This document shows positions 13,723 to 35,463 of a stretch of DNA of 64,000 nucleotides, piece by piece. Position 1 is the first letter of the stretch. Each line of letters begins with the position of its first letter. Under the pieces are notes generated by a model, which was given only the letters and a program-made list of their open reading frames with translations, was not told where the DNA came from and ran no database searches. The DNA comes from Roseovarius indicus (GTDB lineage Bacteria > Pseudomonadota > Alphaproteobacteria > Rhodobacterales > Rhodobacteraceae), in the NCBI RefSeq assembly GCF_008728195.1, contig NZ_CP031598.1:1240001-1304000 (forward strand), in the 5' to 3' direction. The translations under genes were made by a program, and so were the position numbers.

Positions 13723-14172
13723 GTGGTCTCCTGTCATCCAAGATCGTGTGGCTGGCGAGTACCGGGCGCGCGACGGCCATGCTGACAAATCGGCGCGCAT
13801 TACGGTGATCGCGGACAATATCGGACCGTATGTAGACGCTGCTGACCGGCTGTCTAAGGGCCCCTGCCTTATAGCGTTGATGAAGCTGAATCATGAATGG
13901 CGGCTGCGCTTCGGGACGGCCGCGCTCCGGGCGGGCCCTTGGCGCTTGCGCTGTCGGATTTCGTCGGTTGCGACGATCCCGGGAAAGATGTCCGGCCTTA
14001 TGTAGCCGGGTAACGACCGCCGCGTCGGCGCGGCCATCGGGCCAGACCGCCGAGCGGCTGGATAAATGCGCCCGTGCGGTTGCTTGTTTCCGGCGAGCAG
14101 GGCTACATGGCGGGCGCCGGGCCCGGCCCTGATGCCGGCCCCACGTTCTTAGCCTGTGAAGGATAGTAGACC
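13723..14172. other. 450-bp divergent intergenic region
   Basis: Lies between the iorA-like gene (leftward) and the acyl-CoA dehydrogenase gene (rightward). It must hold promoters for both. The only clear element is the TCGTCG-N4-CGACGA palindrome at 13961-13977. Short open frames here have no family resemblance and no good ribosome-binding site. Confidence 0.6.
13961..13977. promoter_or_regulatory. TCGTCG-N4-CGACGA palindrome, site A
   Basis: TCGTCGGTTGCGACGAT, with 6-bp inverted arms and a 4-bp spacer, 196 bp upstream of the acyl-CoA dehydrogenase start. It shares a 20-bp identical core with site B. Inferred operator for the MalT-like activator encoded at 22613-25315. Confidence 0.6.
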
Positions 14173-15378
14173 ATGGATTTCAGAATTTCCGCCGACCTCG
14201 AAAACACCCGCCGCCGGATCGCGGCATTCGTCGAGGAAAGGCTTCTCCCGCTGGAGGCGGACAAGGCGAGTTATGACGACCATGAGAACATTGCCCTCGA
14301 CGTGCTGGAGCGCGAACGCGCCGCGGCCCGCGAGGCGGGGCTGTGGTGCCTGCAGATGCCGCGTGAACTTGGCGGCGGCGGGCTGGGCAAGGCCGGGATG
14401 GCCGTCTGCTACGAAGAGATGAACCGCTCGATCTTCGGGCCGGTCGTGTTCAACTCGGCCGCGCCGGACGATGGCAACATGATGGTTCTGGGCGCGCTGG
14501 GCACCGAGGCGCAGCAGGAGCGCTGGCTGCAGCCGATCATGCGGGGCGAGGTGCGCTCGGCCTTTGCCATGACCGAACCGCACCCCGGCGGCGGCTCCGA
14601 CCCGGGGATGATGCAGACCCGCGCCGAGAAGCGCGGCGACCGCTACGTCGTTCACGGCCGCAAGTGGTTCATCACCGGCGCCGACGAGGCCGCCCATTTC
14701 ATCCTGCTCGCCCGCACGTCGGATGACGCGCGCCGCGGACACACCGCGTTCCTCTTCCACCGCGACGATCCGGGTTGGCGCATCGAACGCCGTATCCCGA
14801 TCATGGGCCCGGAAGAGCATGGCGGCCATTGCGAGATCGTCTTCGACGGGCTCGAGATACCGGAAGAGAACGTCATTCTCGAAGAGGGGCGCGGCATGAA
14901 GGTCACCCAGACCCGCCTCGGCCCGGCACGCCTGACCCACTGCATGCGCTGGCTGGGTCTGGCCAAGCGCTGCATGGAGATAGCCACCGAATACGCCGAG
15001 GTGCGCGAAGGCTTCGGCCAGCGCCTGATCGAGCGCGAAAGCGTGGCGCAGATGCTGGGCGACGTCGCCATGCGCATCGAGGTCGGCCGCATGCTGGTGA
15101 TGAAGGCCGCGCAGGAGATCGATCGCGGCGGCTTCGCCAAGAAAGAGATCTCGATGGCCAAGATCCAGGTGGCCAACGTGCTGCACGACGCCGCCGACGT
15201 GGCGATTCAGATCAACGGCGCCCGCGGCTATTCGAAGGATACCGTCGTGGAGTGGATCTACCGCTATGCCCGCCAGGCCCGCCTCGTCGACGGCGCCGAC
15301 GAGGTGCACCGCATGATCCTCAGCCGCGAACTGCGCTCGGAAGGCCGCGACTTCTGGCGCTGGGGCGTGGCGGAGTAA
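14173..15378 (+). CDS. Acyl-CoA dehydrogenase, ACAD10/11-like
   Basis: FAD-dependent acyl-CoA dehydrogenase fold protein, 401 aa. FAD- and substrate-binding segments seen include FAMTEPHPGGGSDP (about residues 134-147), KWFITGADEAAHFI and the C-terminal INGARGYSKD. At the position of the catalytic glutamate of medium-chain enzymes (YEGTxQ) it reads VDGADEVH, so the residue is aspartate, as in ACAD10/11-type proteins. It sits 5 bp upstream of an APH-fold kinase gene, the pairing found in 4-hydroxyacyl-CoA catabolism (LvaC with LvaA in Pseudomonas putida; ACAD10/11 carry the kinase fused). Inferred role: elimination from a 4-phosphoacyl-CoA rather than plain dehydrogenation. Confidence 0.85.
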   Translation: MDFRISADLENTRRRIAAFVEERLLPLEADKASYDDHENIALDVLERERAAAREAGLWCLQMPRELGGGGLGKAGMAVCYEEMNRSIFGPVVFNSAAPDDGNMMVLGALGTEAQQERWLQPIMRGEVRSAFAMTEPHPGGGSDPGMMQTRAEKRGDRYVVHGRKWFITGADEAAHFILLARTSDDARRGHTAFLFHRDDPGWRIERRIPIMGPEEHGGHCEIVFDGLEIPEENVILEEGRGMKVTQTRLGPARLTHCMRWLGLAKRCMEIATEYAEVREGFGQRLIERESVAQMLGDVAMRIEVGRMLVMKAAQEIDRGGFAKKEISMAKIQVANVLHDAADVAIQINGARGYSKDTVVEWIYRYARQARLVDGADEVHRMILSRELRSEGRDFWRWGVAE

Positions 15379-15383
15379 TCGGG

Positions 15384-16391
15384 ATGAGCGAAACGGATTT
15401 CGACCCGGCCCGCCTTCAGGCCGTGCTCGACGCTGAACTCGGCGCCGCCCCGGTGTCCGAACTGACGCGCATTTCGGGCGGCCAGTCGAACCCCACCTAT
15501 TTCGTCACCCACGGTGATCGCCGGATGGTGCTGCGCAAGCAGCCGAACGGCGAGATCCTGAAAGGGGCCCATGCCATCGACCGCGAACACCGCGTGATGA
15601 AGGCGTTGGGCCCCACCGATGTGCCCGTCCCCGACGCGGTGCTCTTTCACGACGACCCGGACGCGCTCGGCACGCCCTTCTACCTGATGGAGCGGCTCGA
15701 CGGCCGCGTGTTCGACGATTGCTCGCTTCCCGGCATGGCGCCTGACGAGCGCCACGCCATCTATCTCGGCATGGCCGACGCCATGGCCAAGATGCACGCC
15801 GTTGACCCGGCCCAGATCGGCCTTGGCGACTACGGCAAGCCCGGCAATTACTTCGCCCGGCAGGTCGGGCGATGGACGAAACAGCTTCACGGCTCCACGG
15901 GCGAGCCCATCCCTGAACTGCATCGCCTCTCGGAATGGCTCGAGGCGAACCTCCCCGAGGATGACGGCAAGAGCGTCATCGCCCATGGCGATTTCCGCCT
16001 CGGCAACCTGATGTTCCACCCCACCGAACCCCGGGTGATCGCCATCCTCGATTGGGAACTGTCAACCCTGGGCCACCCGCTGGCCGACCTGGGCTATTGC
16101 TGCATGACCTGGCACACCACGCCCGAGGAATACGGCGGCATCCGGGGACTCGACCTCGAAAATCTTGGCATCCCCGCGAAAGACACGTTCGTCGCGCATT
16201 ACGAGAAACAGGCCGCCTCCGGCCGTCTGAGCGATTTCCACGTCATCTTCTCGCTCTTCCGCTTCGGCGTGATCTTCGTCGGCATCGCCGACCGCGCCCG
16301 GGCTGGCACGGCCGCCGGCTCCGATGCCGCGCGTCTGGCGCCGCTGGCCCAGGCCTTCGGCCGGCGCGGGCTCGAACTGATCGACGGCTGA
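15384..16391 (+). CDS. Phosphotransferase (APH fold), LvaA/ACAD10-kinase-like
   Basis: Aminoglycoside-phosphotransferase-fold kinase, 335 aa. An N-terminal lobe with RISGGQSNPTYFV and RMVLRKQPNGEIL (the nucleotide-anchoring lysine region) is followed by the catalytic loop HGDFRLGNLMF at about residues 201-211 and the metal-binding AILDWELSTLGHPLADLGY. The set of motifs is complete, so it should be an active kinase. ATG 15384 lies 5 bp after the dehydrogenase stop with GGG ahead. Context suggests it phosphorylates the hydroxyl of a 4-hydroxyacyl-CoA so that the neighbouring dehydrogenase can eliminate phosphate. That role is inferred from the LvaA family. Confidence 0.85.
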   Translation: MSETDFDPARLQAVLDAELGAAPVSELTRISGGQSNPTYFVTHGDRRMVLRKQPNGEILKGAHAIDREHRVMKALGPTDVPVPDAVLFHDDPDALGTPFYLMERLDGRVFDDCSLPGMAPDERHAIYLGMADAMAKMHAVDPAQIGLGDYGKPGNYFARQVGRWTKQLHGSTGEPIPELHRLSEWLEANLPEDDGKSVIAHGDFRLGNLMFHPTEPRVIAILDWELSTLGHPLADLGYCCMTWHTTPEEYGGIRGLDLENLGIPAKDTFVAHYEKQAASGRLSDFHVIFSLFRFGVIFVGIADRARAGTAAGSDAARLAPLAQAFGRRGLELIDG

Positions 16392-16400
16392 GGCGCGAAT

Positions 16401-16417
16401 TCGTCGGTTGCGACGAT
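16401..16417. promoter_or_regulatory. TCGTCG-N4-CGACGA palindrome, site B
   Basis: TCGTCGGTTGCGACGAT begins 10 bp after the kinase stop and ends 65 bp before the thiolase ATG. It is identical to site A over 20 bp. Position suggests an activator site for an internal promoter driving the thiolase-to-TRAP segment. Confidence 0.6.
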
Positions 16418-16482
16418 CCGGGCAGGCCGCCCACATGACAGTGTGGCCAAGCAATATCTGAAGACCAGAAGGGAGGGGGCGG

Positions 16483-17658
16483 ATGCCAGACGCCTATATC
16501 GTAGCCGCGAAACGCACGGCCGGCGGCCGCCGGAAGGGCGCGCTTTCGGGGTGGCACCCGGCAGACCTCGCGGCACAGGTCGTCGACCATCTCGTCGACC
16601 TCACCGGCGCCGACCCGGAAACCATCGACGACGTCATCGTCGGCTGCGTCGGGCAGGCGGGCGAGCAGAGCTTCAACATCGGCCGCAACGTGGTGCTGGC
16701 CTCCTCGCTGCCCGAAACCGTGCCGGGCACCTCGGTCGACCGGCAATGCGGCTCCTCCCAGCAGGCCCTGCACTTCGCGGCCCAGGCCGTCATGTCGGGC
16801 ACGCAGGATATCGTGATCGCCGCCGGCGTCGAAAGCATGACCCGCGTGCCCATGGGCTTGCCATATACCCTGCCCAAGAAGAACGGGCTCGGCACCTACA
16901 TCTCCCCCAACATGCAGGCGCGCTACCCCGGCATCGAGTTCAGCCAGTTTGACGGCGCCGAAACCATCGCCCGCAAATACGGCTTTTCCCGCGAACGGCT
17001 TGACGCCTTCGCCCGGCAAAGCCACGAGCGCGCGGCCCAGGCCACCGACCGTGGCCAATTCGAGGACGAGATCCTGCCGGTCGAAATTCGCCCCTTCGAA
17101 GGCGAGTCGGAGGGCATGCACGTCCGCGACGAGGGCATTCGCGCCGACACCACGCTGGAGGGGCTCGCAGGGCTCGACCCTATCGTCGAGGGCGGGCTTC
17201 TGACCGCCGGCAATGCCAGCCAGATGTGCGACGGCGCATCGGCGGTCATGGTGGTGAACGAGGCCGGGCTCAAGGCCCTGGGCGTCGAGCCGTTGGCACG
17301 CATCCACCACATGAGCGTCCATGGCGGCGACCCGGTCGTCATGCTGGAAACCCCGATCGAGGCCACCCGCCGGGCGCTGGCCAAGGCGGGCATGACACTG
17401 GACCAGATCGACCTCTTCGAGGTGAACGAGGCCTTCGCACCCATCCCGCTCGCCTTCATCGAGGCGCTGGGCGCCGATCCCTCCAAGGTCAACGTGCGCG
17501 GCGGGGCCATCGCCCTCGGCCACCCGCTCGGCGCCACCGGCACCAAGCTGATGGCGACGCTCGTGCACGCGCTTCGGAAACGCGACGCACGCTTCGGCCT
17601 GCAAACCATGTGCGAAGGCGGCGGCCTCGCCAACGTCACCGTGGTGGAGCGCCTGTAA
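16483..17658 (+). CDS. Acetyl-CoA C-acyltransferase (thiolase)
   Basis: Thiolase, 391 aa, full length. It cleaves a 3-ketoacyl-CoA with CoA to acetyl-CoA and a shortened acyl-CoA. The complete catalytic set is visible: nucleophile Cys89 in SVDRQCGSSQQAL, the GGAIALGHPLGATG histidine segment, and the second cysteine in TMCEGGGLANVTVVE. ATG 16483 follows GGGAGGGGG. The stop overlaps the next ATG by 1 bp, so it is co-transcribed with the enoyl-CoA hydratase, flavoprotein and TRAP genes. Confidence 0.92.
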   Translation: MPDAYIVAAKRTAGGRRKGALSGWHPADLAAQVVDHLVDLTGADPETIDDVIVGCVGQAGEQSFNIGRNVVLASSLPETVPGTSVDRQCGSSQQALHFAAQAVMSGTQDIVIAAGVESMTRVPMGLPYTLPKKNGLGTYISPNMQARYPGIEFSQFDGAETIARKYGFSRERLDAFARQSHERAAQATDRGQFEDEILPVEIRPFEGESEGMHVRDEGIRADTTLEGLAGLDPIVEGGLLTAGNASQMCDGASAVMVVNEAGLKALGVEPLARIHHMSVHGGDPVVMLETPIEATRRALAKAGMTLDQIDLFEVNEAFAPIPLAFIEALGADPSKVNVRGGAIALGHPLGATGTKLMATLVHALRKRDARFGLQTMCEGGGLANVTVVERL

Positions 17659-18464
17659 TGGCGGCCCCAACCCTGATCGAGCTCTCGACCGAGGGCAACG
17701 TGGCCGTCCTCACGCTCGCCAACGAGGCGACGCGCAACGCCCTCACCGTGGCGATGCAGCGCGAACTGCTCGACGCGCTCGACCGGATCGCGGCGGATGA
17801 CGCGATCCACGCCGTGGTGCTCACGGGGCAGGGCAGGGGCTTCTGCTCGGGCGCCGAGCTTGGCGGCTTGAAACCCGAGGGCGACGAGACCCTGGGCCAA
17901 ACCGTGGCCCGCCAGATGGACGAGACGACCCACCCCCTGATGGAACGCCTGCGCAACTTCGACAAGCCGGTGATCGCGGCGGTAAACGGCGCGGCGGCGG
18001 GCATGGGCGCCAGCCTCGCGCTCGCCTGCGACATGGTCGTGGCCGCCGAAACCGCCTTCTTCGTCTTCCCCTTCGCGCCCAATCTCGGGCTGGTTCCCGA
18101 TTGCGGCGCGACATGGCACCTGGCCCGCCGCCTTGGTCCGGCGCGGGCGATGACCCTCGCGCTGACAGGCGAACGCCTGCCGGCTGCCACCGCGGCCTCC
18201 ATCGGCCTCATCGCCGAGTCCGTCGACCCGGCCAGGCTCCACACCCGCGCCGTCGAACTCGCCACCGCCGCCGGCGCCGCGCCGCCGCACATGGTGGCCG
18301 AGCTTCGCGCCGCCTTCGATGCCGCACTCGCTTCCGATTTCTCTACCCAGCTGGAATATGAACGCCAGCGGCAGAAGGAACTGCTCGACGGCGCCGCTTT
18401 CGCCGAAGGCACCGCCGCCTTCCTCGAAAAACGCAAACCCGATTTCCGAAAGGCCGGCACATGA
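17658..18464 (+). CDS. Enoyl-CoA hydratase/isomerase family protein, PaaG-like
   Basis: Crotonase-fold protein, 268 aa. The first oxyanion-hole segment is GQGRGFCSGAELGG (about residues 56-69) and the second NGAAAGMGASLALACD. The two glutamates that catalyse water addition in classical hydratases are not at their usual places. Instead it reads FAPNLGLVPDCGATWHL, the GLVPD pattern seen in PaaG-type isomerases. An isomerase moving a 3,4-double bond to the 2,3-position is therefore at least as likely as a hydratase, which would fit the proposed 4-hydroxy acid route. The ATG at 17658 overlaps the thiolase stop. Confidence 0.85.
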   Translation: MAAPTLIELSTEGNVAVLTLANEATRNALTVAMQRELLDALDRIAADDAIHAVVLTGQGRGFCSGAELGGLKPEGDETLGQTVARQMDETTHPLMERLRNFDKPVIAAVNGAAAGMGASLALACDMVVAAETAFFVFPFAPNLGLVPDCGATWHLARRLGPARAMTLALTGERLPAATAASIGLIAESVDPARLHTRAVELATAAGAAPPHMVAELRAAFDAALASDFSTQLEYERQRQKELLDGAAFAEGTAAFLEKRKPDFRKAGT

Positions 18465-19432
18465 CCAACCGCCTGACCGACATGCTGGGCATTCGCTACC
18501 CGATCGTACAGGGCGGCATGCAATGGGTGGGTTACGCCGAGATGGCCGCCGCCGTGTCGAACGCGGGCGGCCTCGGCACCCTCACAGCCCTGTCGCAACC
18601 CGACCCCGACGCACTCTCAAAGGAAATCGCCCGCACGCGCGAGATGACCGATGCGCCCTTCGCGGTGAACCTCACGGTGCTGCCTTCCATTAACCCGCCG
18701 CCCTATGCCGAGTATGTCGACGCCATCGTCGAAAGCGGCGTGAAGATCGTCGAGACCGCCGGCCAGTCGCCGCGCGAATTCGTCGAGACCTTCAAGGCCA
18801 ACGATATCCGCATCCTGCACAAATGCACCCAGGTCCGCCACGCCCTCTCGGCCCAGAAATCCGGCGTCGACGTGATCTCGATAGACGGTTTCGAATGCGC
18901 CGGCCACCCGGGCGAAAAGGACATTCCCAACCTGCTGCTGGTGCCGCTCGCAGTGCGGGCGCTCGACATCCCCGTAATCGCCTCGGGCGGCATCGGCGAG
19001 GGCCGGGGCCTTGCCGCCGCGATGGCCATGGGCGCCGACGGCATCAACATGGGCACCCGCTTCTGCGCCACGAAAGAGGCGCCGATCCACGACAACATCA
19101 AGCGCGCGCTGGTCGAGGCCACCGAGCATGACACCCGCCTGATCTTCCGCACCATGAACAACACCGCACGGGTTCTCGCCAACGCCATCTCCGACGAGGT
19201 GGTCGCCACCGAACGGCGCGAGGGCGGCTGCGAGTTCAAGGATATCCGCCACCTCGTCGCCGGCCAGCGCGGCAAGGCGGCGCTGGAGGCGGGCGAGGTC
19301 GACAACGGTGTCATCACCGCCGGGCCGGTGATCGGCCTGATCGACGACATCCCAAGCTGCGCCGAACTGATCGAGCGCATGATGGAGGAGGCCCGCCGCC
19401 ACCTGCGCGACGGGCTCGCGGCGCTCGTGTAA
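18461..19432 (+). CDS. Nitronate monooxygenase / 2-nitropropane dioxygenase family flavoprotein
   Basis: FMN-binding TIM-barrel protein, 323 aa. N-terminal RYPIVQGGMQWVGYAEMAAAVSNAGGLG is the family signature; a landmark inside it is VQGGMQWVG at about residues 11-19. The conserved histidine region is GFECAGHPGEKD, and the FMN phosphate site is SGGIGEGRGLAAAMAMGADG-like. Members include nitronate monooxygenases and FabK-type enoyl reductases, so inside a beta-oxidation operon an enoyl-CoA-related reductase role cannot be excluded. The ATG overlaps the upstream stop by 4 bp. Confidence 0.85.
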   Translation: MTNRLTDMLGIRYPIVQGGMQWVGYAEMAAAVSNAGGLGTLTALSQPDPDALSKEIARTREMTDAPFAVNLTVLPSINPPPYAEYVDAIVESGVKIVETAGQSPREFVETFKANDIRILHKCTQVRHALSAQKSGVDVISIDGFECAGHPGEKDIPNLLLVPLAVRALDIPVIASGGIGEGRGLAAAMAMGADGINMGTRFCATKEAPIHDNIKRALVEATEHDTRLIFRTMNNTARVLANAISDEVVATERREGGCEFKDIRHLVAGQRGKAALEAGEVDNGVITAGPVIGLIDDIPSCAELIERMMEEARRHLRDGLAALV

Positions 19433-19454
19433 AGCGCGCCGGAAGGGAGGAGAC

Positions 19455-19997
19455 ATGAAGAGTTTCGGACGCGGGATCGACCGGCTCACCCGGGCGCTCG
19501 TCTTGCTGGGCGGGGTCTGCGTGGCGCTGATGATGCTGCACGTCACCGCCGAGATCGTGCTGCGCGCCACGCTGAACATGCCGCTGCCGGGCACCATCAC
19601 CATCGTCGCCAACTACTACATGATCGTCGCGGCCTTCGCACCGCTGGCGCTTCTCGAACAGCGCAACGAACATATCTCGGTCGACATCTTCACCGCCGCC
19701 ATGCCCGCGTTTATGCAGCGTATCATCGAGATCGCCGTGCGCGCCCTGACGGCGGCAGTCCTGTCGCTGCTGGCGGCCCGTACCTGGACCGAAGCCCTCT
19801 CCAAGGCCGATATCGGCGCCTCGGTCACGCAAGGCTCCTCCTCGATCCCGGTCTGGCCCGCCTATTTCGTGCTGCCCGTCGGAGCGGCGGCCATGGCGCT
19901 GGTCGCGGCGATCCGCATGGTCGAGGCGGCGACGCGCACTGATCTCGGCCTCCCCGACAGCCACGAGGCCCTGATGGCACAGGAGCGGGCGGAATGA
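19455..19997 (+). CDS. TRAP transporter small permease (DctQ-like)
   Basis: Four-helix inner-membrane subunit of a tripartite ATP-independent periplasmic transporter, 180 aa. Hydrophobic segments lie at about 15-38, 52-72, 92-112 and 135-155, and the conserved LEQRNEHISVDIFT motif follows helix 2. The start ATG is preceded by GGGAGGAG. It overlaps the large permease by 4 bp. This first TRAP set is inside the acyl-CoA degradation block, so it likely imports the carboxylate that is degraded there. Confidence 0.9.
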   Translation: MKSFGRGIDRLTRALVLLGGVCVALMMLHVTAEIVLRATLNMPLPGTITIVANYYMIVAAFAPLALLEQRNEHISVDIFTAAMPAFMQRIIEIAVRALTAAVLSLLAARTWTEALSKADIGASVTQGSSSIPVWPAYFVLPVGAAAMALVAAIRMVEAATRTDLGLPDSHEALMAQERAE

Positions 19998-21298
19998 GCG
20001 ACGTAGGCATCGGTTTCACGGGGCTCGGCATCCTGCTTCTCCTCCTCGCCCTGCGCACGCCGATCGGCGTGGCGCTCATGTCGGTCTCCTTCACCGGGCT
20101 CTGGGTGCTGATGGGCTGGCGCGTGGCCTGGGGCTCGCTCGGCACGCTGCCCTACCAGTTCGCGGCCAACTGGGTGCTATCCTCCGTGCCGATGTTCCTC
20201 CTGCTGGGCTTCATCTGCTACCACACCCGGCTGACCGAGGGGCTTTTCGCGGCGGCGCGGCTCTGGCTCGGGCGCTTGCCCGGGGGCCTGGGCGTCGCGG
20301 CCATCGCGGGCTCGGCCGGCTTTGCCGCCGTCTCCGGCTCCTCGATTGCCTGCTCGGCCACAATGGGCCGGATCGCGGTGCCGGAAATGGTCAAGGGCCG
20401 CTACGACCCGGGCTTCGCCACCGGCATCGTCGCCGTGGCGGGCACCATCGGGGCGCTGATCCCGCCCTCGATCATCATGATCCTCTTCGGCATCGTCGCC
20501 CAGGAAAGCATCGCGGCGCTCTTCCTCGCGGGCATCGCGGCAGGGCTCATCACCACGCTCGCCTATGTCATCCTCGTTATCGTGCGCGTCCGCCTGAACC
20601 CCTCGCTCGCCCCGCCGGCCGAGGTCACCGCCACAAGGCGCGAGAAGATCGCCGCGCTGCGCGACACCTGGCCCATCGTCGCCACCATGATCGGCATCTT
20701 CGCCGGCCTCTTCGGCGGCATCTTCACCCCGACCGAAGCCGGCGCCGTGGGCGCGGCGCTGGCCACACTGGTGGCGGTCCTCAAGCGCAGCTTCACCTGG
20801 GCCCGCTTCCGGGCGGCCGTGTCCGAAACGCTGATGGCCACCGGCATGCTGCTCTTCGTCGCCATCGGCGCCAGCCTGCTGACCCGCTTCCTCGCCCTTT
20901 CAGGCGCCTCCGACGCGCTCTCCTCCGTCCTGATCGGCACCGACGTGCCCTTCGCCGTGATGATGCTCGGGCTGGTGCTGGTCTATCTGCTGCTGGGCAT
21001 GTTCCTCGAACCCATCGGCGCCATGCTCCTGACGCTGCCCATCGTGCTGCCGGTGATCGACGCCTACGGCATGTCGGTGATCCTTTTCGGCGTGATCCTG
21101 ACCAAGCTGCTGGAAATCGGCATGCTCACGCCCCCCGTCGGCATGAACGTCTTCGTCATCAAGAGCGTGGTCGGCAACCTTGTCCCGATCCAGACGATCT
21201 TCCGCAACGTGGCGATCTTCATCGCGGTCGACCTGGTTATCGTGGCCCTGCTCCTGGCGGTCCCGGCGCTCGCACTCTGGCTTCCCGGCCTGCTCTGA
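19994..21298 (+). CDS. TRAP transporter large permease (DctM-like)
   Basis: Large ion-coupled permease subunit of the TRAP transporter, 434 aa, normal length, with about twelve hydrophobic segments. DctM signatures are VPMFLLLGFI, GSAGFAAVSGSSIACSATMGRIAVPEM (landmark SGSSIACSAT near residue 115), GTIGALIPPSIIMILFGI and FTPTEAGAVGA, plus LTPPVGMNVFV near the end. Its final base of stop codon is also the first base of palindrome site C. Confidence 0.92.
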   Translation: MSDVGIGFTGLGILLLLLALRTPIGVALMSVSFTGLWVLMGWRVAWGSLGTLPYQFAANWVLSSVPMFLLLGFICYHTRLTEGLFAAARLWLGRLPGGLGVAAIAGSAGFAAVSGSSIACSATMGRIAVPEMVKGRYDPGFATGIVAVAGTIGALIPPSIIMILFGIVAQESIAALFLAGIAAGLITTLAYVILVIVRVRLNPSLAPPAEVTATRREKIAALRDTWPIVATMIGIFAGLFGGIFTPTEAGAVGAALATLVAVLKRSFTWARFRAAVSETLMATGMLLFVAIGASLLTRFLALSGASDALSSVLIGTDVPFAVMMLGLVLVYLLLGMFLEPIGAMLLTLPIVLPVIDAYGMSVILFGVILTKLLEIGMLTPPVGMNVFVIKSVVGNLVPIQTIFRNVAIFIAVDLVIVALLLAVPALALWLPGLL

Positions 21299-21314
21299 TC
21301 GTCGCAACCGACGA
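21298..21314. promoter_or_regulatory. TCGTCG-N4-CGACGA palindrome, site C (reverse orientation)
   Basis: ATCGTCGCAACCGACGA, the exact reverse complement of sites A and B. It overlaps the DctM stop codon and ends 75 bp before the DctP start. Probably an extra activator site boosting expression of the binding protein. Confidence 0.6.
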
Positions 21315-21389
21315 CGCGGCGCGCGCCCCGGCCCGCCAGACTGACCCTGACGATGCGAATCAGGCGTCGCTAAACCTCGGGAGGAAGAG

Positions 21390-22523
21390 ATGATCACCAG
21401 ACACACACTCGCGGCCAGCGTGCTGGCCCTGACGGCCGGCGCGGCCAGCGCCGACACCCTGACCTATGCCACCGGCTTTCCGCCGGGTTCAGACGCGGTG
21501 AAAGCCGCCGAAACCTATGCCGCGGCGATGGAGGAACATTCCGGCGGCGAGCTCGGCGTCAAGGTCTTCCCGATGTCGCTGCTCAGCTTCGCCGAAACCT
21601 CCTCGGGCCTGCGCGACGGGCTGGCCGATATCGGTTGGGTCGCCACCGCATACTTTCCCGCCGAATACCCGCATATCAACCTGATCGCCGAACTGTCGCT
21701 GCTGACCGCGGCGGATGACGTCGAGGGCGGCGAGGGGCTCGCCTATGCCGGCGCCATGGCCGAGTACATCTTCGGCGCCTGCGAAAGCTGCCGGGCAGAT
21801 TTCGCCGCGCAGAACCAGGTCTTCACCGGCGCCGCCTCGTCGACGCCCTATGGCCTGCAATGTACCGAAGCCGTGACCAGCCTCGACGACCTTCAGGGCA
21901 AGCGCCTCCGCGTCGCCGGTTCGCAATGGTCGCGCTGGGCCGGGTCGGTCGGGGCGACGGCGGTGTCACTGCCGCTCAACGAGGTCTACGAGGGCCTCAG
22001 CCAGGGTGTGATCGACTGCGTCATCACCTCCGCGCCCGAGATCACCAACATGGGCCTCATCGACGTGATCAAGGCGGTCGACATGTCGACGCCGGGCGGC
22101 GTTTACGCCGCGAACGGTCCGATCAACATGAACAGCGCCCGCTGGGCCGGTCTCAGCGACGCGGGCCGCGAGGCCGCCCTGCGCGCCGGCGCCGCCTTCG
22201 CCGCTGACGTCTCCTGGCGCTACGAGGAAGGCTCGGCGCGCTCGCTCGACGCGGCCAGGGAGAAGGGCGTCGAACTGACCGAGCCGGATGAGGGCCTGAC
22301 CAAGGCGACGGAAGATTTCATTGCGGCCGACGTGGACGCCATCGCCGAATATTATGCCAGCGAGCACGGCATCGAGAACGCCGCCGACATCGTCGCGGAA
22401 TTCCGACCGATCCTCGAGAAATGGATCGACCTGACCAAGGATGTGGGCTCCGCCGAAGAGCTGGAACAGCTCTACTGGGACGAGGTCTATTCCACCGTGG
22501 ACGCGTCGTCCTACGGGCAGTAA
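21390..22523 (+). CDS. TRAP transporter substrate-binding protein (DctP family)
   Basis: Periplasmic receptor of the first TRAP transporter, 377 aa. A Sec signal peptide spans about residues 1-21 (LAASVLALTAGAASA). DctP features are LRDGLADIGWV, the domain-linking LQGKRLRVAG with the ligand carboxylate-binding arginine region, and LPLNEVYEGLSQGVID. It contains two close cysteines (FGACESCRADF), unusual for DctP and possibly a disulfide. ATG 21390 follows GGGAGGAAGAG. The gene comes after the permeases rather than before them and has its own upstream palindrome. Confidence 0.9.
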   Translation: MITRHTLAASVLALTAGAASADTLTYATGFPPGSDAVKAAETYAAAMEEHSGGELGVKVFPMSLLSFAETSSGLRDGLADIGWVATAYFPAEYPHINLIAELSLLTAADDVEGGEGLAYAGAMAEYIFGACESCRADFAAQNQVFTGAASSTPYGLQCTEAVTSLDDLQGKRLRVAGSQWSRWAGSVGATAVSLPLNEVYEGLSQGVIDCVITSAPEITNMGLIDVIKAVDMSTPGGVYAANGPINMNSARWAGLSDAGREAALRAGAAFAADVSWRYEEGSARSLDAAREKGVELTEPDEGLTKATEDFIAADVDAIAEYYASEHGIENAADIVAEFRPILEKWIDLTKDVGSAEELEQLYWDEVYSTVDASSYGQ

Positions 22524-22544
22524 CCTCAACGCTGCAACACCGGC

Positions 22545-22575
22545 GGACCCGGCGGCCAGGAATGGCGCCGGGTCC
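22545..22575 (+). terminator. Hairpin terminator between dctP-like and regulator genes
   Basis: Ten-bp perfect stem (GGACCCGGCG / CGCCGGGTCC) with an 11-nt loop followed by GTCTT, 21 bp after the binding-protein stop. Likely separates the TRAP operon from the activator gene. Confidence 0.55.
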
Positions 22576-22612
22576 GTCTTGATGCGCAGGGGAGTGCGCA
22601 AGGGGGAACACG

Positions 22613-25315
22613 GTGTCGGATGGAAGTTACGCCCCGGCCAGGGGGCTGGGCCACAAGCTTGAAGCGCCCAAGGTCGGCGACGACGTGGTCGGGCGTGACG
22701 AGCATGTCCGCCGTCTCTGCGACGCCGAGGGCGCCAGGCTCATCCTCCTGCACGCGCCCTCGGGTTTCGGCAAGACCGTCGTCATGGCGCAGATCCTCGA
22801 CGAGATGCGCCGCCGCGGCTGCGCCTGCGGCTGGCTGACCCTCGACCGTGCCGACAACGACGCCTCGCGCCTCGTGACCGGCCTTCAGGCGGCCATCGAC
22901 CGGCTGGGCGCTACGCCCGGCACCCCGGCCGAAAGCGAAACCGGAAACGACGGCACCGCCATGGTCGAGCTTCTGGGCCGCGTCGCCGACCTCACCGAGC
23001 CCTTCGCGCTATTCCTCGACGATTTCGAAACCCTGCACGAGGATTCCGTGCTGACCCTGATCGCGCGGCTGATCCAGACCCTGCCGGCCCATGGCCGCCT
23101 GATCGTCGGCAGCCGCAAGATCCCCGACCTCCCCATGGCCCGCCTGCGCGCCACCGGCGAGATGCTCGAACTCGACATGCGCGCCCTCAGCTTCACGCGC
23201 GAGGAGACTGGCGCCTTCCTCGCCTCCGCCCGCGGCGTCGACCTGAACGAGGCCGACCAGACCCGCCTGCACAGCAAGACCGAAGGCTGGCCCGTGGCTC
23301 TCCGCCTGGCCTCGATCGTCCTCTCCGAAGCCCGCGATCAAAGCGGCTTCGTCCGCGATTTCTCCGGCTCCGACCGGCTGGTCTCTGACTTTCTCGCCGA
23401 GAACATCCTCGACACCCAGGACGCCGAAGTGCGCGAGTTCCTCCTGCGCACCAGCATCCTGCGCGCCCTCGAACCCCAGCTTTGCGAGGCGCTCGTGCCC
23501 GGCTGCGACGGTGCCGCGCTGCTGGAACGGCTCGCCGCCGCCAACGTGCTCCTCAACCGCATCGACGGCACCGCGCCGGTCTACCGCTTCCACTCGCTCT
23601 TCGCAGCTTACCTGCGCGCGCGGCTCGCCTCGCAGCACCCCGAAGAGCTGCCCCGCCTCCATACCGCCGCCATGGAATGGTACCTCGCCAACGACCGCCC
23701 CGTGCCCGCCATCGACCACGGGATCGAGGCACAGGCCATCGACCGCGTTCTCGCACTGGTGGGCGAGGTTGGCCAGGCCTGCCTCGAACAGGGCCGCATC
23801 CGCCTGCTGACCCGCTGGTTCGACATGCTGCCGGATGACCGCGTGGCCGACGAACCCCGCCTCTGCCTGATGAAGGCCTGGGCCTATTGCTTCACCCGCG
23901 GCCCGCGAGAAGCCGCTGCCGTGCTCGACGCCAACCGGCTCGAGGCCGAGGCCGGAGAGGTCGGGGCAGAAGCGCTCTCCATCCGCACCATGATCCGCGC
24001 CATGAGCGACGATTTCCGCGGCGCCGCCGAGATCGGCCGCGAGGCGCTCGACCGCGCGGCCTGCTCCTCACGCTACAGCCGCACGGTGCTGGCCAACTGC
24101 ATGGCCAACGCCTTCTCGGTGCTCGGCGCCCCCGACGCCGCGCTCGAAAACCTTGACGAGGCCCGCGCCGAGCTCGGCGGACCCGAGGACGCCTTCAACA
24201 CCATGTACTCCGAATCCGTCCAGGGTCTCATCGACCTTCAGGAAAACCGCTTCCGCGAGGCCAAGGCCCGCTTCCGCCTGGCCGCCTCCGCCCGCCGCTC
24301 CGACGACCGCCGCCGCTTCAACGGCAATGCCTGGGCCGGGGTGCCGCTGGCCTGCGTCCGCTACGAGGAAGACGCCCAGGACGAGGCGGAGCACCTGTTG
24401 CAGGTCTTCCTGCCCATCGTCCGCGATGTCAGCCTCCCCGATCACCTGATCCTCAGCCACGTCACCCTGTCGCGCATCGCCTTCTGGCACGGGCAGGTCG
24501 ACCACGCCTTCCGCTACCTGGCCGAGTTGGAACAGGTCGGCCAGCGCCGCCGCCTTGACCGCGTGGTCGCCGGCGCCCGGCTGGAACGCACCCGGCTCTA
24601 CCTGCGGCAGGGCAACCTTTCGGCGGCCCGCCACCAGATCGACCGCGCCCGCAACAATGCCCTGTGGGAGGAGGTCCGCGACCTGCGCCTGCCGGCCAAT
24701 GACCTCGACACCCGCGACATCACCGAGGCGCGCGTGCTGCTCGCAGAGGGGCGCGCCTCCGAAGCGCTCGACATCCTCGACGCCGAAAGCGCTGCCGCCG
24801 AACCGCGCCACCGCCGTCGCCGCCTTCTGGTCCTGGACTTCCTGCGCGCCGCCGCGCTCCTGCGCCTCGGCGAAACCGGCCGCGCCCGCGAAACCGCGGG
24901 CAACGCCCTGCGCATCGCGGCGCGCGAAGGCTACCGCCGGCTGATCCTCGACGAGGGCGAGCCCGTCGCCGACGCCATCCGCGCCTGGGCCGGCCCCGCG
25001 CTTTCCGGCGACCTGCCGCGCCGCGACCCGGTCTTCGCCGAATGGCTTCAGGCGCTCTCCGACGCGCTCGGCCCCGGCCACGCCGCCGGCAGCACCGAGG
25101 TCTCCCGCCACGCCCCCCTCGACCCGCTCACCAAGAAGGAACTGCAGATCCTGCGGCTTCTTTCCGAGGGCTATTCCAACGCCGCCATGGCCGAGAAACT
25201 CTTCGTCTCCGACAGCACCGTGCGCACCCACCTGCGCAACATCAACTCCAAGCTCGACACCGCCAGCCGCACCCAGGCCGTCGCCGCCGCCCGCCAGCTC
25301 GGCATCCTCGGCTGA
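22613..25315 (+). CDS. LuxR family ATP-dependent transcriptional activator (MalT/LAL type)
   Basis: Large STAND-class regulator, 900 aa, the usual MalT size. The N-terminal NTPase carries Walker A HAPSGFGKT (about residues 47-55) and a Walker B-like FALFLDDFE near 125-133. A long helical TPR-like middle (about 350-780) is the ligand-sensing region, and the C-terminal LuxR helix-turn-helix lies at about 838-895 (LTKKELQILRLLSEGYSN, VSDSTVRTHLRNINSKL). The GTG start at 22613 follows AAGGGGGAA. It sits in the middle of the acyl-CoA block, and the four TCGTCG palindromes surround it, so it is the likely activator of that regulon, probably responding to an acyl-CoA or the transported acid. Confidence 0.9.
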   Translation: MSDGSYAPARGLGHKLEAPKVGDDVVGRDEHVRRLCDAEGARLILLHAPSGFGKTVVMAQILDEMRRRGCACGWLTLDRADNDASRLVTGLQAAIDRLGATPGTPAESETGNDGTAMVELLGRVADLTEPFALFLDDFETLHEDSVLTLIARLIQTLPAHGRLIVGSRKIPDLPMARLRATGEMLELDMRALSFTREETGAFLASARGVDLNEADQTRLHSKTEGWPVALRLASIVLSEARDQSGFVRDFSGSDRLVSDFLAENILDTQDAEVREFLLRTSILRALEPQLCEALVPGCDGAALLERLAAANVLLNRIDGTAPVYRFHSLFAAYLRARLASQHPEELPRLHTAAMEWYLANDRPVPAIDHGIEAQAIDRVLALVGEVGQACLEQGRIRLLTRWFDMLPDDRVADEPRLCLMKAWAYCFTRGPREAAAVLDANRLEAEAGEVGAEALSIRTMIRAMSDDFRGAAEIGREALDRAACSSRYSRTVLANCMANAFSVLGAPDAALENLDEARAELGGPEDAFNTMYSESVQGLIDLQENRFREAKARFRLAASARRSDDRRRFNGNAWAGVPLACVRYEEDAQDEAEHLLQVFLPIVRDVSLPDHLILSHVTLSRIAFWHGQVDHAFRYLAELEQVGQRRRLDRVVAGARLERTRLYLRQGNLSAARHQIDRARNNALWEEVRDLRLPANDLDTRDITEARVLLAEGRASEALDILDAESAAAEPRHRRRRLLVLDFLRAAALLRLGETGRARETAGNALRIAAREGYRRLILDEGEPVADAIRAWAGPALSGDLPRRDPVFAEWLQALSDALGPGHAAGSTEVSRHAPLDPLTKKELQILRLLSEGYSNAAMAEKLFVSDSTVRTHLRNINSKLDTASRTQAVAAARQLGILG

Positions 25316-25317
25316 GA

Positions 25318-25335
25318 ATCGTCGGTAGCGACGAT
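25318..25335. promoter_or_regulatory. ATCGTCG-N4-CGACGAT palindrome, site D
   Basis: ATCGTCGGTAGCGACGAT, a perfect 7-bp inverted repeat around GTAG, 2 bp after the activator stop and 80 bp before the acyl-CoA ligase ATG. It differs from sites A-C by one base in the spacer. Spacing to the start codon resembles sites B and C. Confidence 0.62.
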
Positions 25336-25415: not shown

Positions 25416-26969
<1,554 letters not shown>

Positions 26970-26978: not shown

Positions 26979-28136
26979 ATGAGACCCCGACTGCATTTCG
27001 AACAGGAACACGACATGTTCCGCGACAGCGTGCAGAAGTTCCTGACGGCCGAGATGGCGCCCCAGGTCGACCGCTGGCGCGAGCAGGGCCATGTCGACCG
27101 CGCCGCCTTCCGCCGCATGGGCGAGGAGGGCTACCTCTGCATGTGGGCGGACGAGGCCTATGGCGGGCTCGGCATCACCGACCTGCGCTTTGAACAGGTG
27201 CTGCAGGAAGAAACCGTGCGCCTTGTCGATCCGGGTTTCTTCCACAACGCCCATTCCAAGCTGGTGGGCCCCTACCTCGAACGCCTCGCCACCGACGAGC
27301 AGAAGGCCCGCTTCCTGCCCGGCGCCGTCTCGGGCGAAACCATCCTCGGCATCGCTCTCACCGAACCCGACGCCGGCAGCGACCTCGCCGCGATCCGTAC
27401 CCGCGCGGTCGAGCACGAGGATCACTGGGTCCTGAACGGCGCCAAGACATATATCTCCAACGGCGTCATCGGCGACCTCTTCGTCACCGCCGCCCGCACC
27501 GGCGACAAGCGCGGCCAGATCGGCCTCTTCGTCGTGACCTCCGACATGGAAGGCTTCTCGCGCGGCCGCCACCTCAAGAAGATCGGCCTGCACGCCCAGG
27601 ACACCGCCGAGCTGCGCTTCGACAATATCCGGATTCCGAAAGAGAACGTGCTCGCCGACCCGGGCCGGGGCTTCACCTACATGGCCGAATGCCTCGCGGT
27701 CGAACGGCTGATGAGCGCGATCACCTCGATCGCCCACGCCCAGGCCGCCTTCGAGGTGACCACCGACTTCATCCTCGAACGCCGCGCCTTCGGCAAACCC
27801 ATCGCCGCCTTCCAGAACACCCGCTTCCGCATGGCCGAGATGCGGGCCGAGCTGGACGCCGTGCAATCCTATGTCGACCGCTGCGTGACGCTCGCCAATA
27901 ACGACCGCCTCTCGCCCGAGGCCGCCGCCGCCGCCAAGCTCGCCACCTCCGAAACCGAGGGCAGCGTGATCGACCAATGCGCCCAGTTCCACGGCGGCGC
28001 CGGCTACATGGACGAATACCGCATCGCCCGGATGTACGCCGATGCCCGCATCAGCCGGGTCTACGCGGGCGCCAGCGAAATCATGCTCGAGATCGTCGGC
28101 CGGGGTCTCGGCCTCGGCGAACGCGACCTGACCTGA
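26979..28136 (+). CDS. Acyl-CoA dehydrogenase, long-chain/isovaleryl type
   Basis: FAD enzyme introducing the alpha-beta double bond in an acyl-CoA, 385 aa. FAD and substrate segments: ALTEPDAGSDLA (about residues 126-137), NGAKTYISNG, RRAFGKPIAAFQ and FHGGAGYMDEYRIAR. The usual C-terminal catalytic-glutamate position reads YAGASEIM, so that residue is alanine. As in long-chain and isovaleryl enzymes, the base is probably the glutamate in the VERLMSAITS helix. It is close in sequence to the dehydrogenase at 31462, a paralogue in the same operon. Confidence 0.9.
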   Translation: MRPRLHFEQEHDMFRDSVQKFLTAEMAPQVDRWREQGHVDRAAFRRMGEEGYLCMWADEAYGGLGITDLRFEQVLQEETVRLVDPGFFHNAHSKLVGPYLERLATDEQKARFLPGAVSGETILGIALTEPDAGSDLAAIRTRAVEHEDHWVLNGAKTYISNGVIGDLFVTAARTGDKRGQIGLFVVTSDMEGFSRGRHLKKIGLHAQDTAELRFDNIRIPKENVLADPGRGFTYMAECLAVERLMSAITSIAHAQAAFEVTTDFILERRAFGKPIAAFQNTRFRMAEMRAELDAVQSYVDRCVTLANNDRLSPEAAAAAKLATSETEGSVIDQCAQFHGGAGYMDEYRIARMYADARISRVYAGASEIMLEIVGRGLGLGERDLT

Positions 28137-28148: not shown

Positions 28149-29354
28149 ATGCCAGACGCCATCATCTTCGACCACGTCCGCACGCCGCGCGGCAAGGGCC
28201 GCCCCGACGGCGCACTGCACGGCGTGACCCCCATCCAGCTCGCCGCGCAAACCCTGCGCGAACTGCGCCGCCGCACCGAATTCGACCCCGCCGACCTCGC
28301 CGATACCGGGTTGGGCATCGTCATGCCGGTGGGCGAGCAGGGCTGCGACATGACCCGCTTCGCCCTGCTGGAAGCGGGTTATGGCGACGGGGCAGGGGGC
28401 TATCAGCTCAACCGCTTCTGCACCTCCGGCCTCGACACGGTGAAGATGGCGGGTGCCCTCGTCGCCTCCGGCCAGGCCGACGCGGCCGTCGGCGGCGGCG
28501 TCGAAAGCATGAGCCGCGTGCCCATCGGCTCCGATGGCGGTGCGGCCTATTCCGACCCGGCGGTCCTCGCCCGCTTTCCCTACGTCCCCAACGGCATCGC
28601 CGCCGACCTCATGGCCTCGCTCGACGGCACCACCCGCGAAGAGGCCGATACCTACGCCGCCGAAAGCCAGTCCCGCGCCGCCGAGGCCCGGCAGGACGGG
28701 CGCTTCGCTCGCTCCCTCTTCCCCGTGCGCGGCCCCGATGGCGAGGTGGTGCTGGAAGAGGACGAGGCAATCCGCCCCGGCACCTCGGCCGCCAAGCTGG
28801 GCGAGCTGCCGCTGGCCTTCGAAAGCCTCGGCGGGCTCGGCTACGACGACCTCGTGCGTGATCGCTACCCCTCGCTCGAACGGGTCTCCCACGTCCACAC
28901 CGGCGGCAATTCCAGTGGCATCGTCGATGGCGCCTGCGCCGTCCTGGTAGGCTCCGAAGAGTGGGGCCGGGCCAACGGCCTCGCCCCCCGCGTCCGCATC
29001 CGCTCTGCCGCCTCGCTGGCCTCCGAGCCGCATATCTCGCTCGCCGGCGTCGTCCCGGCCACCGACGCGGCCCTCAGGAAGGCAGGCATGGAAATCGACG
29101 ACATCGACCTCTTCGAGGTGAACGAGGCCTTCGCCGTCGTCCCCCTGCGCTATGCCCGCCACTACGGCATCGACCGCGACCTGATCAACGCCAACGGCGG
29201 CGCCATCGCGCTGGGCCATCCGCTCGGCGCGACCGGCGCCATGCTGCTCGGCACCCTGATCGACGAGCTGGAACGCCGCAACCTGTCGACCGGTCTGGTG
29301 ACGCTCTGCGCCGCCGCCGGCCAATCGACCGCGATGATCGTGGAGCGTATCTGA
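28149..29354 (+). CDS. Acetyl-CoA C-acetyltransferase/acyltransferase (thiolase)
   Basis: Full-length thiolase, 401 aa. Nucleophile Cys91 lies in NRFCTSGLDTV, the histidine segment is GGAIALGHPLGATG and the second cysteine is in VTLCAAAGQST. It is the second thiolase of the block and distinct from the one at 16483, suggesting two different chain lengths or a parallel branch. The stop overlaps the next ATG by 1 bp, implying translational coupling with the FadB-like protein, as in fadA/fadB pairs. Confidence 0.92.
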   Translation: MPDAIIFDHVRTPRGKGRPDGALHGVTPIQLAAQTLRELRRRTEFDPADLADTGLGIVMPVGEQGCDMTRFALLEAGYGDGAGGYQLNRFCTSGLDTVKMAGALVASGQADAAVGGGVESMSRVPIGSDGGAAYSDPAVLARFPYVPNGIAADLMASLDGTTREEADTYAAESQSRAAEARQDGRFARSLFPVRGPDGEVVLEEDEAIRPGTSAAKLGELPLAFESLGGLGYDDLVRDRYPSLERVSHVHTGGNSSGIVDGACAVLVGSEEWGRANGLAPRVRIRSAASLASEPHISLAGVVPATDAALRKAGMEIDDIDLFEVNEAFAVVPLRYARHYGIDRDLINANGGAIALGHPLGATGAMLLGTLIDELERRNLSTGLVTLCAAAGQSTAMIVERI

Positions 29355-32637: not shown

Positions 32638-34782
<2,145 letters not shown>

Positions 34783-34802: not shown

Positions 34803-35372
34803 TCAGATGGCCACGACGATCTGCGAGACAAGTTCGGCGGTGTTGTTCACCCCGAATTTCTTCATCAGCCGCGCGCGATGCGTCTCGACCGTGCGGGTCG
34901 AAATGCCAAGCCGCTCACCGATCATGCGCGAGGTCATGCCCTGGCCGATAAGCGGCGCGATCTCGCGTTCCCGAGGGGTCAGGCGGACCGATTGGTATTG
35001 CCGCCCCTCGACGCGGTCGAAGGTCCAGATCATCAGGGCGAACGGGTCTTCCGGTGACAGGGTGCTGCCACGGGCGCGGGCCCAGAACACCTCCTGGTCG
35101 CTGGTCTGCATGAAGCGCTCGTCTTCCCAATAGGTCGCGCCCGTCTTGCGCATCTCCGTCTCGCAGACCTCGCCCAGCCGCTTGAAATCGGTGATCGAAG
35201 GATAGAGCCGCTGGGCCGAGCGGCCGATCAGATCGCTGCGGCGGTAGCCGAACATGCGTTCGAGCGCCCCGTTCAACTCGATAATGCGGCGATAGCGGAC
35301 CATCACATGCGCCACGGGTGATTCTCGGAACGCCAGAAGCCCGGCCTTCTCGGGGGTGGACGTGTCGATCAT
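34803..35372 (-). CDS. PAS domain LuxR family transcriptional regulator
   Basis: Regulator of 189 aa with an N-terminal PAS fold (about residues 12-115; LNGALERMFGYRRSDLIGRS) and a C-terminal LuxR helix-turn-helix (about 122-185; LTPREREIAPLIGQGMTSRM, ISTRTVETHRARLMKKFGV). There is no receiver domain, so it probably senses a ligand directly or a redox signal. ATG 35372 gives a compact PAS start; an in-frame upstream ATG at about 35432 would run through two palindromes. It is divergent from the thiolase gene and is the obvious candidate regulator of the thiolase-ligase-TRAP operon and of itself. Confidence 0.87.
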   Translation of the reverse strand: MIDTSTPEKAGLLAFRESPVAHVMVRYRRIIELNGALERMFGYRRSDLIGRSAQRLYPSITDFKRLGEVCETEMRKTGATYWEDERFMQTSDQEVFWARARGSTLSPEDPFALMIWTFDRVEGRQYQSVRLTPREREIAPLIGQGMTSRMIGERLGISTRTVETHRARLMKKFGVNNTAELVSQIVVAI

Positions 35373-35373
35373 G

Positions 35374-35389: not shown

Positions 35390-35395
35390 GATAAG

Positions 35396-35411: not shown

Positions 35412-35463
35412 TATCCGGCGTTTCTTGTACATGTCATTCTTTCCGCAGTTGAGGGAGGACGAC

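What the first reader, a model, noticed from the sequence alone, without database searches (positions are those of the whole stretch)
13961..25335. Four copies of a TCGTCG-N4-CGACGA palindrome mark a private regulon around a MalT-like activator
The sites at 13961-13977, 16401-16417, 21298-21314 and 25318-25335 are all in gaps between genes, in front of the acyl-CoA dehydrogenase, thiolase, TRAP receptor and acyl-CoA ligase genes. Three are identical (one inverted) and the fourth differs by one spacer base. Sites B, C and D end 65-80 bp before the start codon. The 900-aa MalT-like LuxR gene sits among them, and I saw no copy in the other gaps of the window. This defines a candidate operator and regulon of about 20 kb for a regulator type whose targets are rarely known.
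Basis: partly seen in the sequence, partly recalled or inferred. Interest (0 to 1): 0.75.

Follow-up and report, generated by a model that had tools for sequence, protein, structure and literature searches.

The report
Activator binding sites for acid-degradation genes
Four copies of a short mirror-image DNA sequence look like the docking sites of a large activator protein that switches on neighbouring genes for taking up and breaking down an organic acid, and the same site, spacing and regulator type recur in many other bacteria, so the targets of a little-studied regulator group can be read from DNA.

Summary
In detail: exactly four TCGTCG-N4-CGACGA sites, all between genes; a matrix trained without this species or Oceanicella ranks them 1-4 in the window. 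Around relatives of the 900-aa MalT-like (LAL) regulator the palindrome, with at most one mismatch, lies in gaps in 38 of 45 loci (89 permuted half-sites: mean 1.1, most 8). A -10-like hexamer (NANNNT) starts 23 or 24 bases after it in 74 of 108 flanks, placing it near -42.5/-43.5, as in lux boxes. Exact sites occur in 15 of 33 genomes with the regulator (E 1e-100) and 13 of 316 without; the geometry holds in 14 of 15 and 2 of 13. Loci with sites have the recognition helix T[VI]RTHLR; 6 of 7 without read K-S or K-W there. Best reading: a MalT-architecture activator with a lux-box-like operator, driving carboxylate uptake and acyl-CoA breakdown genes. Exceptions: G939 (orphan site), L060 (no site), G817 (variant sites, no such regulator). 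Binding, inducer and transcript starts are untested.

The parts
13961..13976 (+). Operator site A, before acyl-CoA dehydrogenase and APH-family kinase genes
   Evidence: Exact palindrome; PWM 26.2 bits; no counterpart seen in the Oceanicella locus, so possibly lineage-specific
13999..14004 (+). Possible -10 element of site A (TATGTA, offset 23; last base departs from NANNNT)
   Evidence: Sequence; inferred
14173..15378 (+). Acyl-CoA dehydrogenase
   Evidence: Pfam
15408..16391 (+). APH-family phosphotransferase
   Evidence: PF01636
16401..16416 (+). Operator site B, before the thiolase-ECH-NMO-DctQM genes
   Evidence: Exact palindrome; also before the thiolase gene in L018 and L059
16439..16444 (+). 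-10-like element of site B (CAGTGT, offset 23)
16483..17658 (+). Thiolase
17655..18464 (+). Enoyl-CoA hydratase/isomerase
18461..19432 (+). Nitronate monooxygenase / FabK-like flavoprotein
19455..19997 (+). TRAP small permease DctQ
19994..21298 (+). TRAP large permease DctM
21299..21314 (+). Operator site C, before DctP and probably the regulator
   Evidence: Exact palindrome; in the DctM-DctP gap also in L018 (exact) and L059 (one mismatch)
21337..21342 (+). -10-like element of site C (CAGACT, offset 23; identical in L018)
21390..22523 (+). TRAP solute receptor DctP
22613..25315 (+). MalT-like LAL activator, 900 aa: NTPase, MalT TPR region, C-terminal GerE HTH (helix DSTVRTHLRNIN)
25319..25334 (+). 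Operator site D, before the acyl-CoA ligase genes
   Evidence: Exact palindrome; in the regulator-ligase gap also in L018 (same spacer) and L059
25358..25363 (+). Possible -10 element of site D (TAGGTG, offset 24; last base departs)
   Evidence: inferred
25416..26969 (+). Acyl-CoA ligase (AMP-binding)
26979..28136 (+). Acyl-CoA dehydrogenase
28149..29354 (+). Thiolase
29354..31465 (+). FadB-like multifunctional enzyme (rough start)
   Evidence: homology-based gene map
31462..32628 (+). Acyl-CoA dehydrogenase (rough start)
32638..34782 (+). FadB-like ECH / 3-hydroxyacyl-CoA dehydrogenase

Best explanation
The four palindromes are operators of the 900-aa MalT-like (LAL) activator at 22613-25315. 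Shown by sequence: the site (core TCGTC-N6-GACGA, usually TCGTCG-SWWS-CGACGA) is conserved with this regulator clade in alpha- and betaproteobacteria, lies in gaps before acyl-CoA and transport genes, and sits at a fixed distance (22-23 bases) before a -10-like hexamer, that is, centred near -42.5/-43.5. Inferred: two C-terminal GerE domains of the activated regulator bind the two half-sites and contact RNA polymerase, as LuxR does from a lux box (class II activation), since the palindrome occupies the -35 region. By analogy with MalT (recalled), the NTPase/TPR body would be switched on by ATP plus a small inducer, probably the transported carboxylate or its CoA ester. It would then turn on the acyl-CoA dehydrogenase/APH genes (A), the thiolase-to-DctM genes (B), DctP and probably the regulator itself (C), and the acyl-CoA ligase/beta-oxidation genes (D).
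For: (1) L018 (82% regulator) and L059 (44%) have sites before the same three genes as B, C and D: thiolase, DctP, acyl-CoA ligase. (2) Cupriavidus metallidurans CH34 (44% regulator) has three exact sites around the gene. (3) TCGTCG ranks first of 4096 half-sites at gap 4 (41, next 14), and 39 of 41 exact sites are noncoding where 19% is expected; with one mismatch 38 of 45 loci have a noncoding site, against a mean of 1.1 and a maximum of 8 loci for 89 permuted half-sites. (4) NANNNT at offset 23 or 24 in 74 of 108 flanks; each of the other 53 offsets scanned has 0-9. (5) 15/33 against 13/316 genomes; in the 15, 20 of 24 sites lie within 20 kb of the regulator. (6) Geometry in 14/15 regulator-positive against 2/13 regulator-negative genomes, random rate 9.7%. 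(7) Operator-plus-minus-10 pattern over whole genomes: 282 against 119 control in 37 regulator-positive, 127 against 122 in 41 regulator-negative genomes. (8) The helix T[VI]RTHLR is present in all loci with sites; 6 of 7 without have K-S or K-W. (9) Among gene clusters shared by four or more loci, none besides the LAL looked like a regulator on reading.
Against: No binding, footprint or expression data. The loci were chosen by the regulator, so its presence in all of them is by design; the genome-level tests (5-7) are the less biased ones. Only 15 of 33 regulator genomes have a site exact enough for the strict pattern. 'Regulator-negative' means no match at E 1e-100; 4 of those 13 genomes have weaker LAL matches. 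G939 has a perfect site plus TAGACT before an NMO relative (67% identical) but no regulator hit at E 1e-20. G817 has five distinct TCGTCY-N4-GGACGA palindromes with the same geometry among beta-oxidation genes and no hit to this regulator. L060 has the helix (VRTHVR) but no convincing site. One of three sites in genomes of the window's own family without a regulator hit also shows the geometry (GACTTT in G404). Window sites A and D match the -10 consensus only loosely. Site A is 196 bases from its gene and has no counterpart in L018. No wider regulon is visible in this genome (8 pattern hits, control 6).
Confidence: 0.85

Rival explanations
1. The palindrome is the operator of a different regulator (another LuxR/GerE protein such as the PAS-LuxR at 34803-35660, or a TetR-type repressor as in the La 6 locus).
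For: G939 and G817 have sites with the promoter geometry but no detectable orthologue; La 6 has a KstR-like TetR gene nearby; the PAS-LuxR has a GerE domain.
Against: Among clusters shared by four or more loci none but the LAL looked like a regulator (rough gene calls, read by eye). Site and helix T[VI]RTHLR go together. A fixed distance to -10 is expected of an activator rather than of a repressor.
Confidence: 0.1
2. The sites are RNA hairpins (terminator or attenuator), since B, C and D start within 10 bases of the preceding stop codon and can fold into a 6-bp stem.
For: Sites B-D follow stop codons closely in this window; site D's flank folds better than shuffles (z -2.8).
Against: No U-run follows; the flanks of A-C fold no better than shuffles. 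Sites lie between divergent genes in many loci. Stem-preserving double changes in noncoding DNA: 0 at half-site positions 1, 2, 3 and 5, 3 at position 4, 11 at position 6, so most of the stem is held by sequence, not by pairing. Downstream -10 phasing is unexplained.
Confidence: 0.03
3. Chance: TCGTC/GACGA are common codon-driven words in GC-rich DNA, or a mobile repeat was copied.
For: 20 exact copies in the genome and a 3-mismatch excess in the window.
Against: Noncoding enrichment, permuted half-sites, conservation before the same genes with diverged flanks, and -10 phasing.
Confidence: 0.02

Closest known systems
MalT of Escherichia coli (LAL/STAND activator)
   Same: Architecture: N-terminal NTPase (matches solved MalT 8bob_C, E 2.3e-40), MalT TPR region, C-terminal GerE domain, about 900 aa
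   Different: Below the curated MalT cut-off (356.5 against 537 bits); MalT recognises short MalT boxes 5'-GGA[TG]GA-3' (passage in PMC9628970), here a symmetric 16-bp palindrome; the longer recalled form GGGGAKGAGG occurs once in the window, at 31467 on the other strand, inside a gene start
AlkS (alkane-responsive LAL activator)
   Same: Reported to bind an inverted repeat upstream of the -35 element of PalkB (passage in PMC12740625)
   Different: Controls alkane degradation (recalled); its repeat was not compared here; in the promoters here the palindrome itself covers the -35 region
LuxR / lux box
   Same: GerE domain; palindrome centred at -42.5 (passage in PMC4471428), the position deduced here
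   Different: LuxR is a smaller AHL-binding protein (recalled) with a 20-bp box; this is a 900-aa NTPase regulator with a different sequence
SCO6993 (Streptomyces LAL repressor)
   Same: LAL protein binding palindromes at its targets and its own promoter (passages in PMC9628970)
   Different: Repressor of antibiotic genes, 606 aa; the authors could not predict a consensus site
TesR/TeiR of Comamonas (LuxR-type steroid-degradation regulator)
   Same: LuxR-type control of a catabolic pathway; might relate to the G817 variant sites (speculation)
   Different: Operator not known to me; only passages of a review seen (PMC6678751)

Membership tests
LAL (large ATP-binding LuxR / MalT-like) regulators | N-terminal NTPase with Walker motifs | tested here: met
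   PF13191 4.5e-9; MalT structure match; APSGFGKT and FLDDFE read in the translation
LAL (large ATP-binding LuxR / MalT-like) regulators | Central MalT-type TPR region | tested here: met
   PF17874 2e-28
LAL (large ATP-binding LuxR / MalT-like) regulators | C-terminal GerE/LuxR helix-turn-helix | tested here: met
   PF00196 1.1e-16, residues 837-891
MalT (the maltose regulator itself) | Passes the MalT equivalog cut-off | tested here: not met
   NF003420 356.5 bits, cut-off 537
MalT (the maltose regulator itself) | Maltose genes and MalT boxes at targets | tested here: not met
   Neighbours are acyl-CoA and TRAP genes; one GGGGAKGAGG-type word in the window, at 31467 (this form of the box is recalled)
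lux-box-type class II operators | Palindrome centred near -42.5 of the transcript start | tested here: inconclusive
   Deduced from fixed spacing to a -10-like hexamer; transcript starts not mapped
lux-box-type class II operators | Bound by a GerE-domain dimer | not testable with these tools
   Needs EMSA or footprint

The most novel reading that the evidence does not exclude
The LAL regulators with helix T[VI]RTHLR form one transferable activator module across Alpha- and Betaproteobacteria: one operator code (TCGTC-N6-GACGA, 22-23 bases before -10) is kept while the sensed acid, uptake system (TRAP, Bug/TctC-like, ABC) and acyl-CoA genes change, so regulons and probable substrates of many uncharacterised MalT-like regulators can be read from sequence. 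Inner base changes (as in G817) would mark sister activators with shifted specificity.
Probability: 0.6. Interest if true: 0.68.

Novelty: new variant of a known kind. Interest (0 to 1): 0.62.

Why it matters
MalT-like LAL regulators are numerous (1603 relatives at E 1e-20 among the 7994 candidates scored in one capped search) but were called poorly studied (start of the abstract of PMC3282765 in the listing). Here an operator, its promoter spacing and the matching recognition helix emerge together from comparison alone. That makes the regulons of a whole clade predictable, points to what each member may sense, and offers ready-made acid-inducible promoter and activator pairs for testing in harmless soil and marine bacteria.

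Tried and rejected
Open reading frames across a site as a sign of 'coding': rejected, because in GC-rich DNA at least three of the four intergenic window sites (B, C, D) are also spanned by long open frames; the -10 geometry replaced it. Broad pattern search in the order: 127 of 390 genomes had TCGTCGGNNGCGACGA; in the part of the list shown most spacers are GC-rich and scattered, so not informative by itself. Five of those genomes with A/T spacers, picked from that cut list, gave no regulator hit at 1e-15. Relatives search at 1e-30: one 26% relative in 59 other genomes. Direct-repeat search: no other family of interest. TGCGCA-N6-TGCGCA, another repeat signal, lies in the regulator gene in 27 of 30 cases. 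RNA hairpin reading rejected. Near-invariance of the 86 sites is partly built in, because sites were chosen with at most one mismatch; the fair statements are: of 47 one-mismatch sites 42 differ at half-site position 6. Literature: ten searches answered; six 16-base forms of the operator gave 0 papers. Only open-licence PMC papers are held, so absence from print is not shown.

Weak points of my scripts: the gene caller missed ECH and APH in the window and ran L103's regulator frame over its site; I count L103 as having a site and L060's one-mismatch hit as none. print 38 of 45 with L060 in and L103 out; my count is also 38. L139 is La 6 again (as L059) and was left out from then on; it is still among the 45 loci, which lacked the window. 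The partial G923 regulator was not fetched. The 108 flanks count a site between divergent genes twice. The tree used 44 of 45 rows (length filter): 2 changes of the site label, 0 of 500 shuffles as low; long branches are flagged there. The 41 regulator-negative genomes were picked by me from the head of the family list, plus G939, not at random. The regular expression was wrong and was redone. Close relatives in Roseivivax marinus (82%) and a metagenome (77%) seen were not examined.

Full report
WHAT IS THERE. The window carries exactly four TCGTCG-N4-CGACGA palindromes, at 13961, 16401, 21299 and 25319, each in a gap. Order of genes: [A] acyl-CoA dehydrogenase, APH-family kinase; [B] thiolase, enoyl-CoA hydratase, NMO-type flavoprotein, DctQ, DctM; [C] DctP, MalT-like regulator; [D] acyl-CoA ligase, acyl-CoA dehydrogenase, thiolase, FadB-like, acyl-CoA dehydrogenase, FadB-like. 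The genome has 16 further exact copies, but only these four carry the spacers GTTG or GTAG. None of the 11 further copies I looked at has a -10-like element at the right distance.

CONSERVATION. One genome with a close regulator came from the genome collection: Oceanicella sp. SM1341, 82% identical. Three of its nine palindromes lie in its locus, before the same genes as B, C and D; D even keeps its own spacer. The plasmid of Paracoccaceae bacterium La 6 has the same core gene order with a 44% regulator, and sites before the same three genes, one of them with one mismatch; there the thiolase site lies between divergent genes. Cupriavidus metallidurans CH34, a betaproteobacterium, has three exact sites around a 44% regulator. 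Two more close relatives in the protein search (Roseivivax marinus, and a 77% metagenome protein) were not examined at the DNA level.

FAMILY-WIDE TEST. Before that drop and without the window, one search found 39 exact palindromes in 45 loci, against 1 for the pattern read backwards. In the final 45 there are 41 exact sites in 21 loci; 39 are noncoding where the noncoding fraction is 0.19; at gap 4 TCGTCG leads all 4096 hexamer half-sites (41, next 14). With one mismatch allowed, 38 of 45 loci have a noncoding site, against a mean of 1.1 and a maximum of 8 for 89 permuted half-sites (L060 and L103 as told in Tried and rejected). Genes next to sites are often acyl-CoA ligases, acyl-CoA dehydrogenases, thiolases, enoyl-CoA hydratases, SDRs and the regulator; a good part are unlabelled in my rough map. 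Elsewhere in the loci CoA-transferase-like, Bug/TctC-like and ABC transporter genes recur (named by reading the sequences, not scanned).

OPERATOR. Consensus of 86 noncoding sites: TCGTC and GACGA outside, then mostly G/C, centre A/T, with a weak outer A/T. Part of this is selection, since at most one mismatch was allowed; but of 47 one-mismatch sites 42 differ at half-site position 6, and stem-preserving double changes occur 0 times at positions 1, 2, 3 and 5, 3 times at position 4 and 11 times at position 6. That fits protein contact with TCGTC rather than an RNA stem. A matrix trained on 79 sites, without window and Oceanicella, ranks the four window sites first to fourth.

PROMOTER GEOMETRY. 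Flanks turned toward a gene start within 260 bases gave 108 sequences after removing near-copies and one coding match (a site between divergent genes counts in both directions). NANNNT starts at offset 23 in 38 and at 24 in 38, 74 flanks in all; each other offset from 1 to 55 has 0-9. With a standard -10 hexamer starting at -12, the palindrome covers about -50 to -35 and is centred at -42.5 (offset 23) or -43.5 (offset 24). A LuxR lux box is centred at -42.5 (passage of PMC4471428). In the window, B (CAGTGT) and C (CAGACT) fit; A (TATGTA) and D (TAGGTG) have the A in place but miss the final T.

CO-OCCURRENCE. In one family, 33 of 349 genomes have the regulator at E 1e-100 and 28 of 349 have an exact TCGTCGSWWSCGACGA: 15 of the 33 and 13 of the other 316 (Fisher p 2.5e-10, not corrected for relatedness; 4 of the 13 have weaker LAL matches). 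Comparing by eye, 20 of 24 sites in the 15 positive genomes are within 20 kb of the regulator; the other four are on other contigs of one fragmented genome (G923). One site per genome tested for geometry: 14 of 15 positive genomes, 2 of 13 negative ones, 1 of 3 further regulator-free genomes of the window's own family, 0 of 11 other copies of this genome, 0 of 6 of Oceanicella, random positions 9.7%. The combined pattern over 80 genomes: 282 hits against 119 control in 37 positives, 127 against 122 in 41 negatives, 10 against 7 in two genomes with the K-S type helix. In the window's own genome it finds B and C plus six places outside the window, with a control of six, so no wider regulon is visible there.

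REGULATOR. 900 aa; NTPase, MalT TPR, GerE; the solved MalT N-terminal part is the best structure match; it is not MalT by the curated cut-off. The recognition helix reads T[VI]RTHLR in all loci with sites; of seven loci without, six read TVKSHL or T[VI]KWHL and one (L060) VRTHVR. On a tree, sites follow the clade (2 changes; 0 of 500 shuffles as low; long branches flagged).

AGAINST AND OPEN. G939 has a perfect site and TAGACT before an NMO relative yet no regulator hit. G817 has five distinct palindromes TCGTCY-N4-GGACGA with the same geometry (seven oriented hits) over 70 kb among beta-oxidation genes, with no hit to this regulator and no GerE gene within those 80 kb. So a second factor may read a near-identical operator. 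The regulator-to-site link is therefore strong but correlational; binding, inducer and transcript starts are untested.

KNOWN OR NEW. LAL proteins that bind inverted repeats are known (AlkS, passage in PMC12740625; SCO6993, passages in PMC9628970), and a -42.5 palindrome is the LuxR arrangement. MalT itself uses short MalT boxes (PMC9628970). New here, as far as ten searches of an open-licence library show, is the operator of this clade, its fixed promoter spacing and its matching helix.

Noticed in passing
L203-L206 (G817 C1:2018000-2097999): Five TCGTCY-N4-GGACGA palindromes with a -10-like hexamer 22-23 bases on, spread over 70 kb of thiolase/FadB/ligase/SDR genes, with no relative of this LAL and no GerE gene in that stretch: a possible sister regulon with shifted specificity.
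   Followed up: partly
L161 and L209 (G939 C6:1235): Orphan perfect operator with TAGACT 22 bases on, about 35 bases before an NMO gene 67% identical to the window's, in a genome with no detectable regulator.
   Followed up: partly
L210-L212 (G923): Further sites, some followed by -10-like hexamers, on a second contig beside ligase and FadB-like matches, suggesting a larger regulon in this genome.
   Followed up: partly
window 34803-35660 (-): A PAS plus GerE (LuxR-type) regulator closes the cluster on the other strand; its targets are unknown and no exact palindrome lies beside it.
   Followed up: no
window 14173-16391: Acyl-CoA dehydrogenase paired with an APH-family kinase under site A; recalled as the pairing of 4-hydroxyacid catabolism (Lva/ACAD10-11 type), which would hint at the substrate.
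   Followed up: no
L107 and L130 (G798): One genome has two members of the regulator clade, each with its own sites: L130 exact, L107 one-mismatch types.
   Followed up: no
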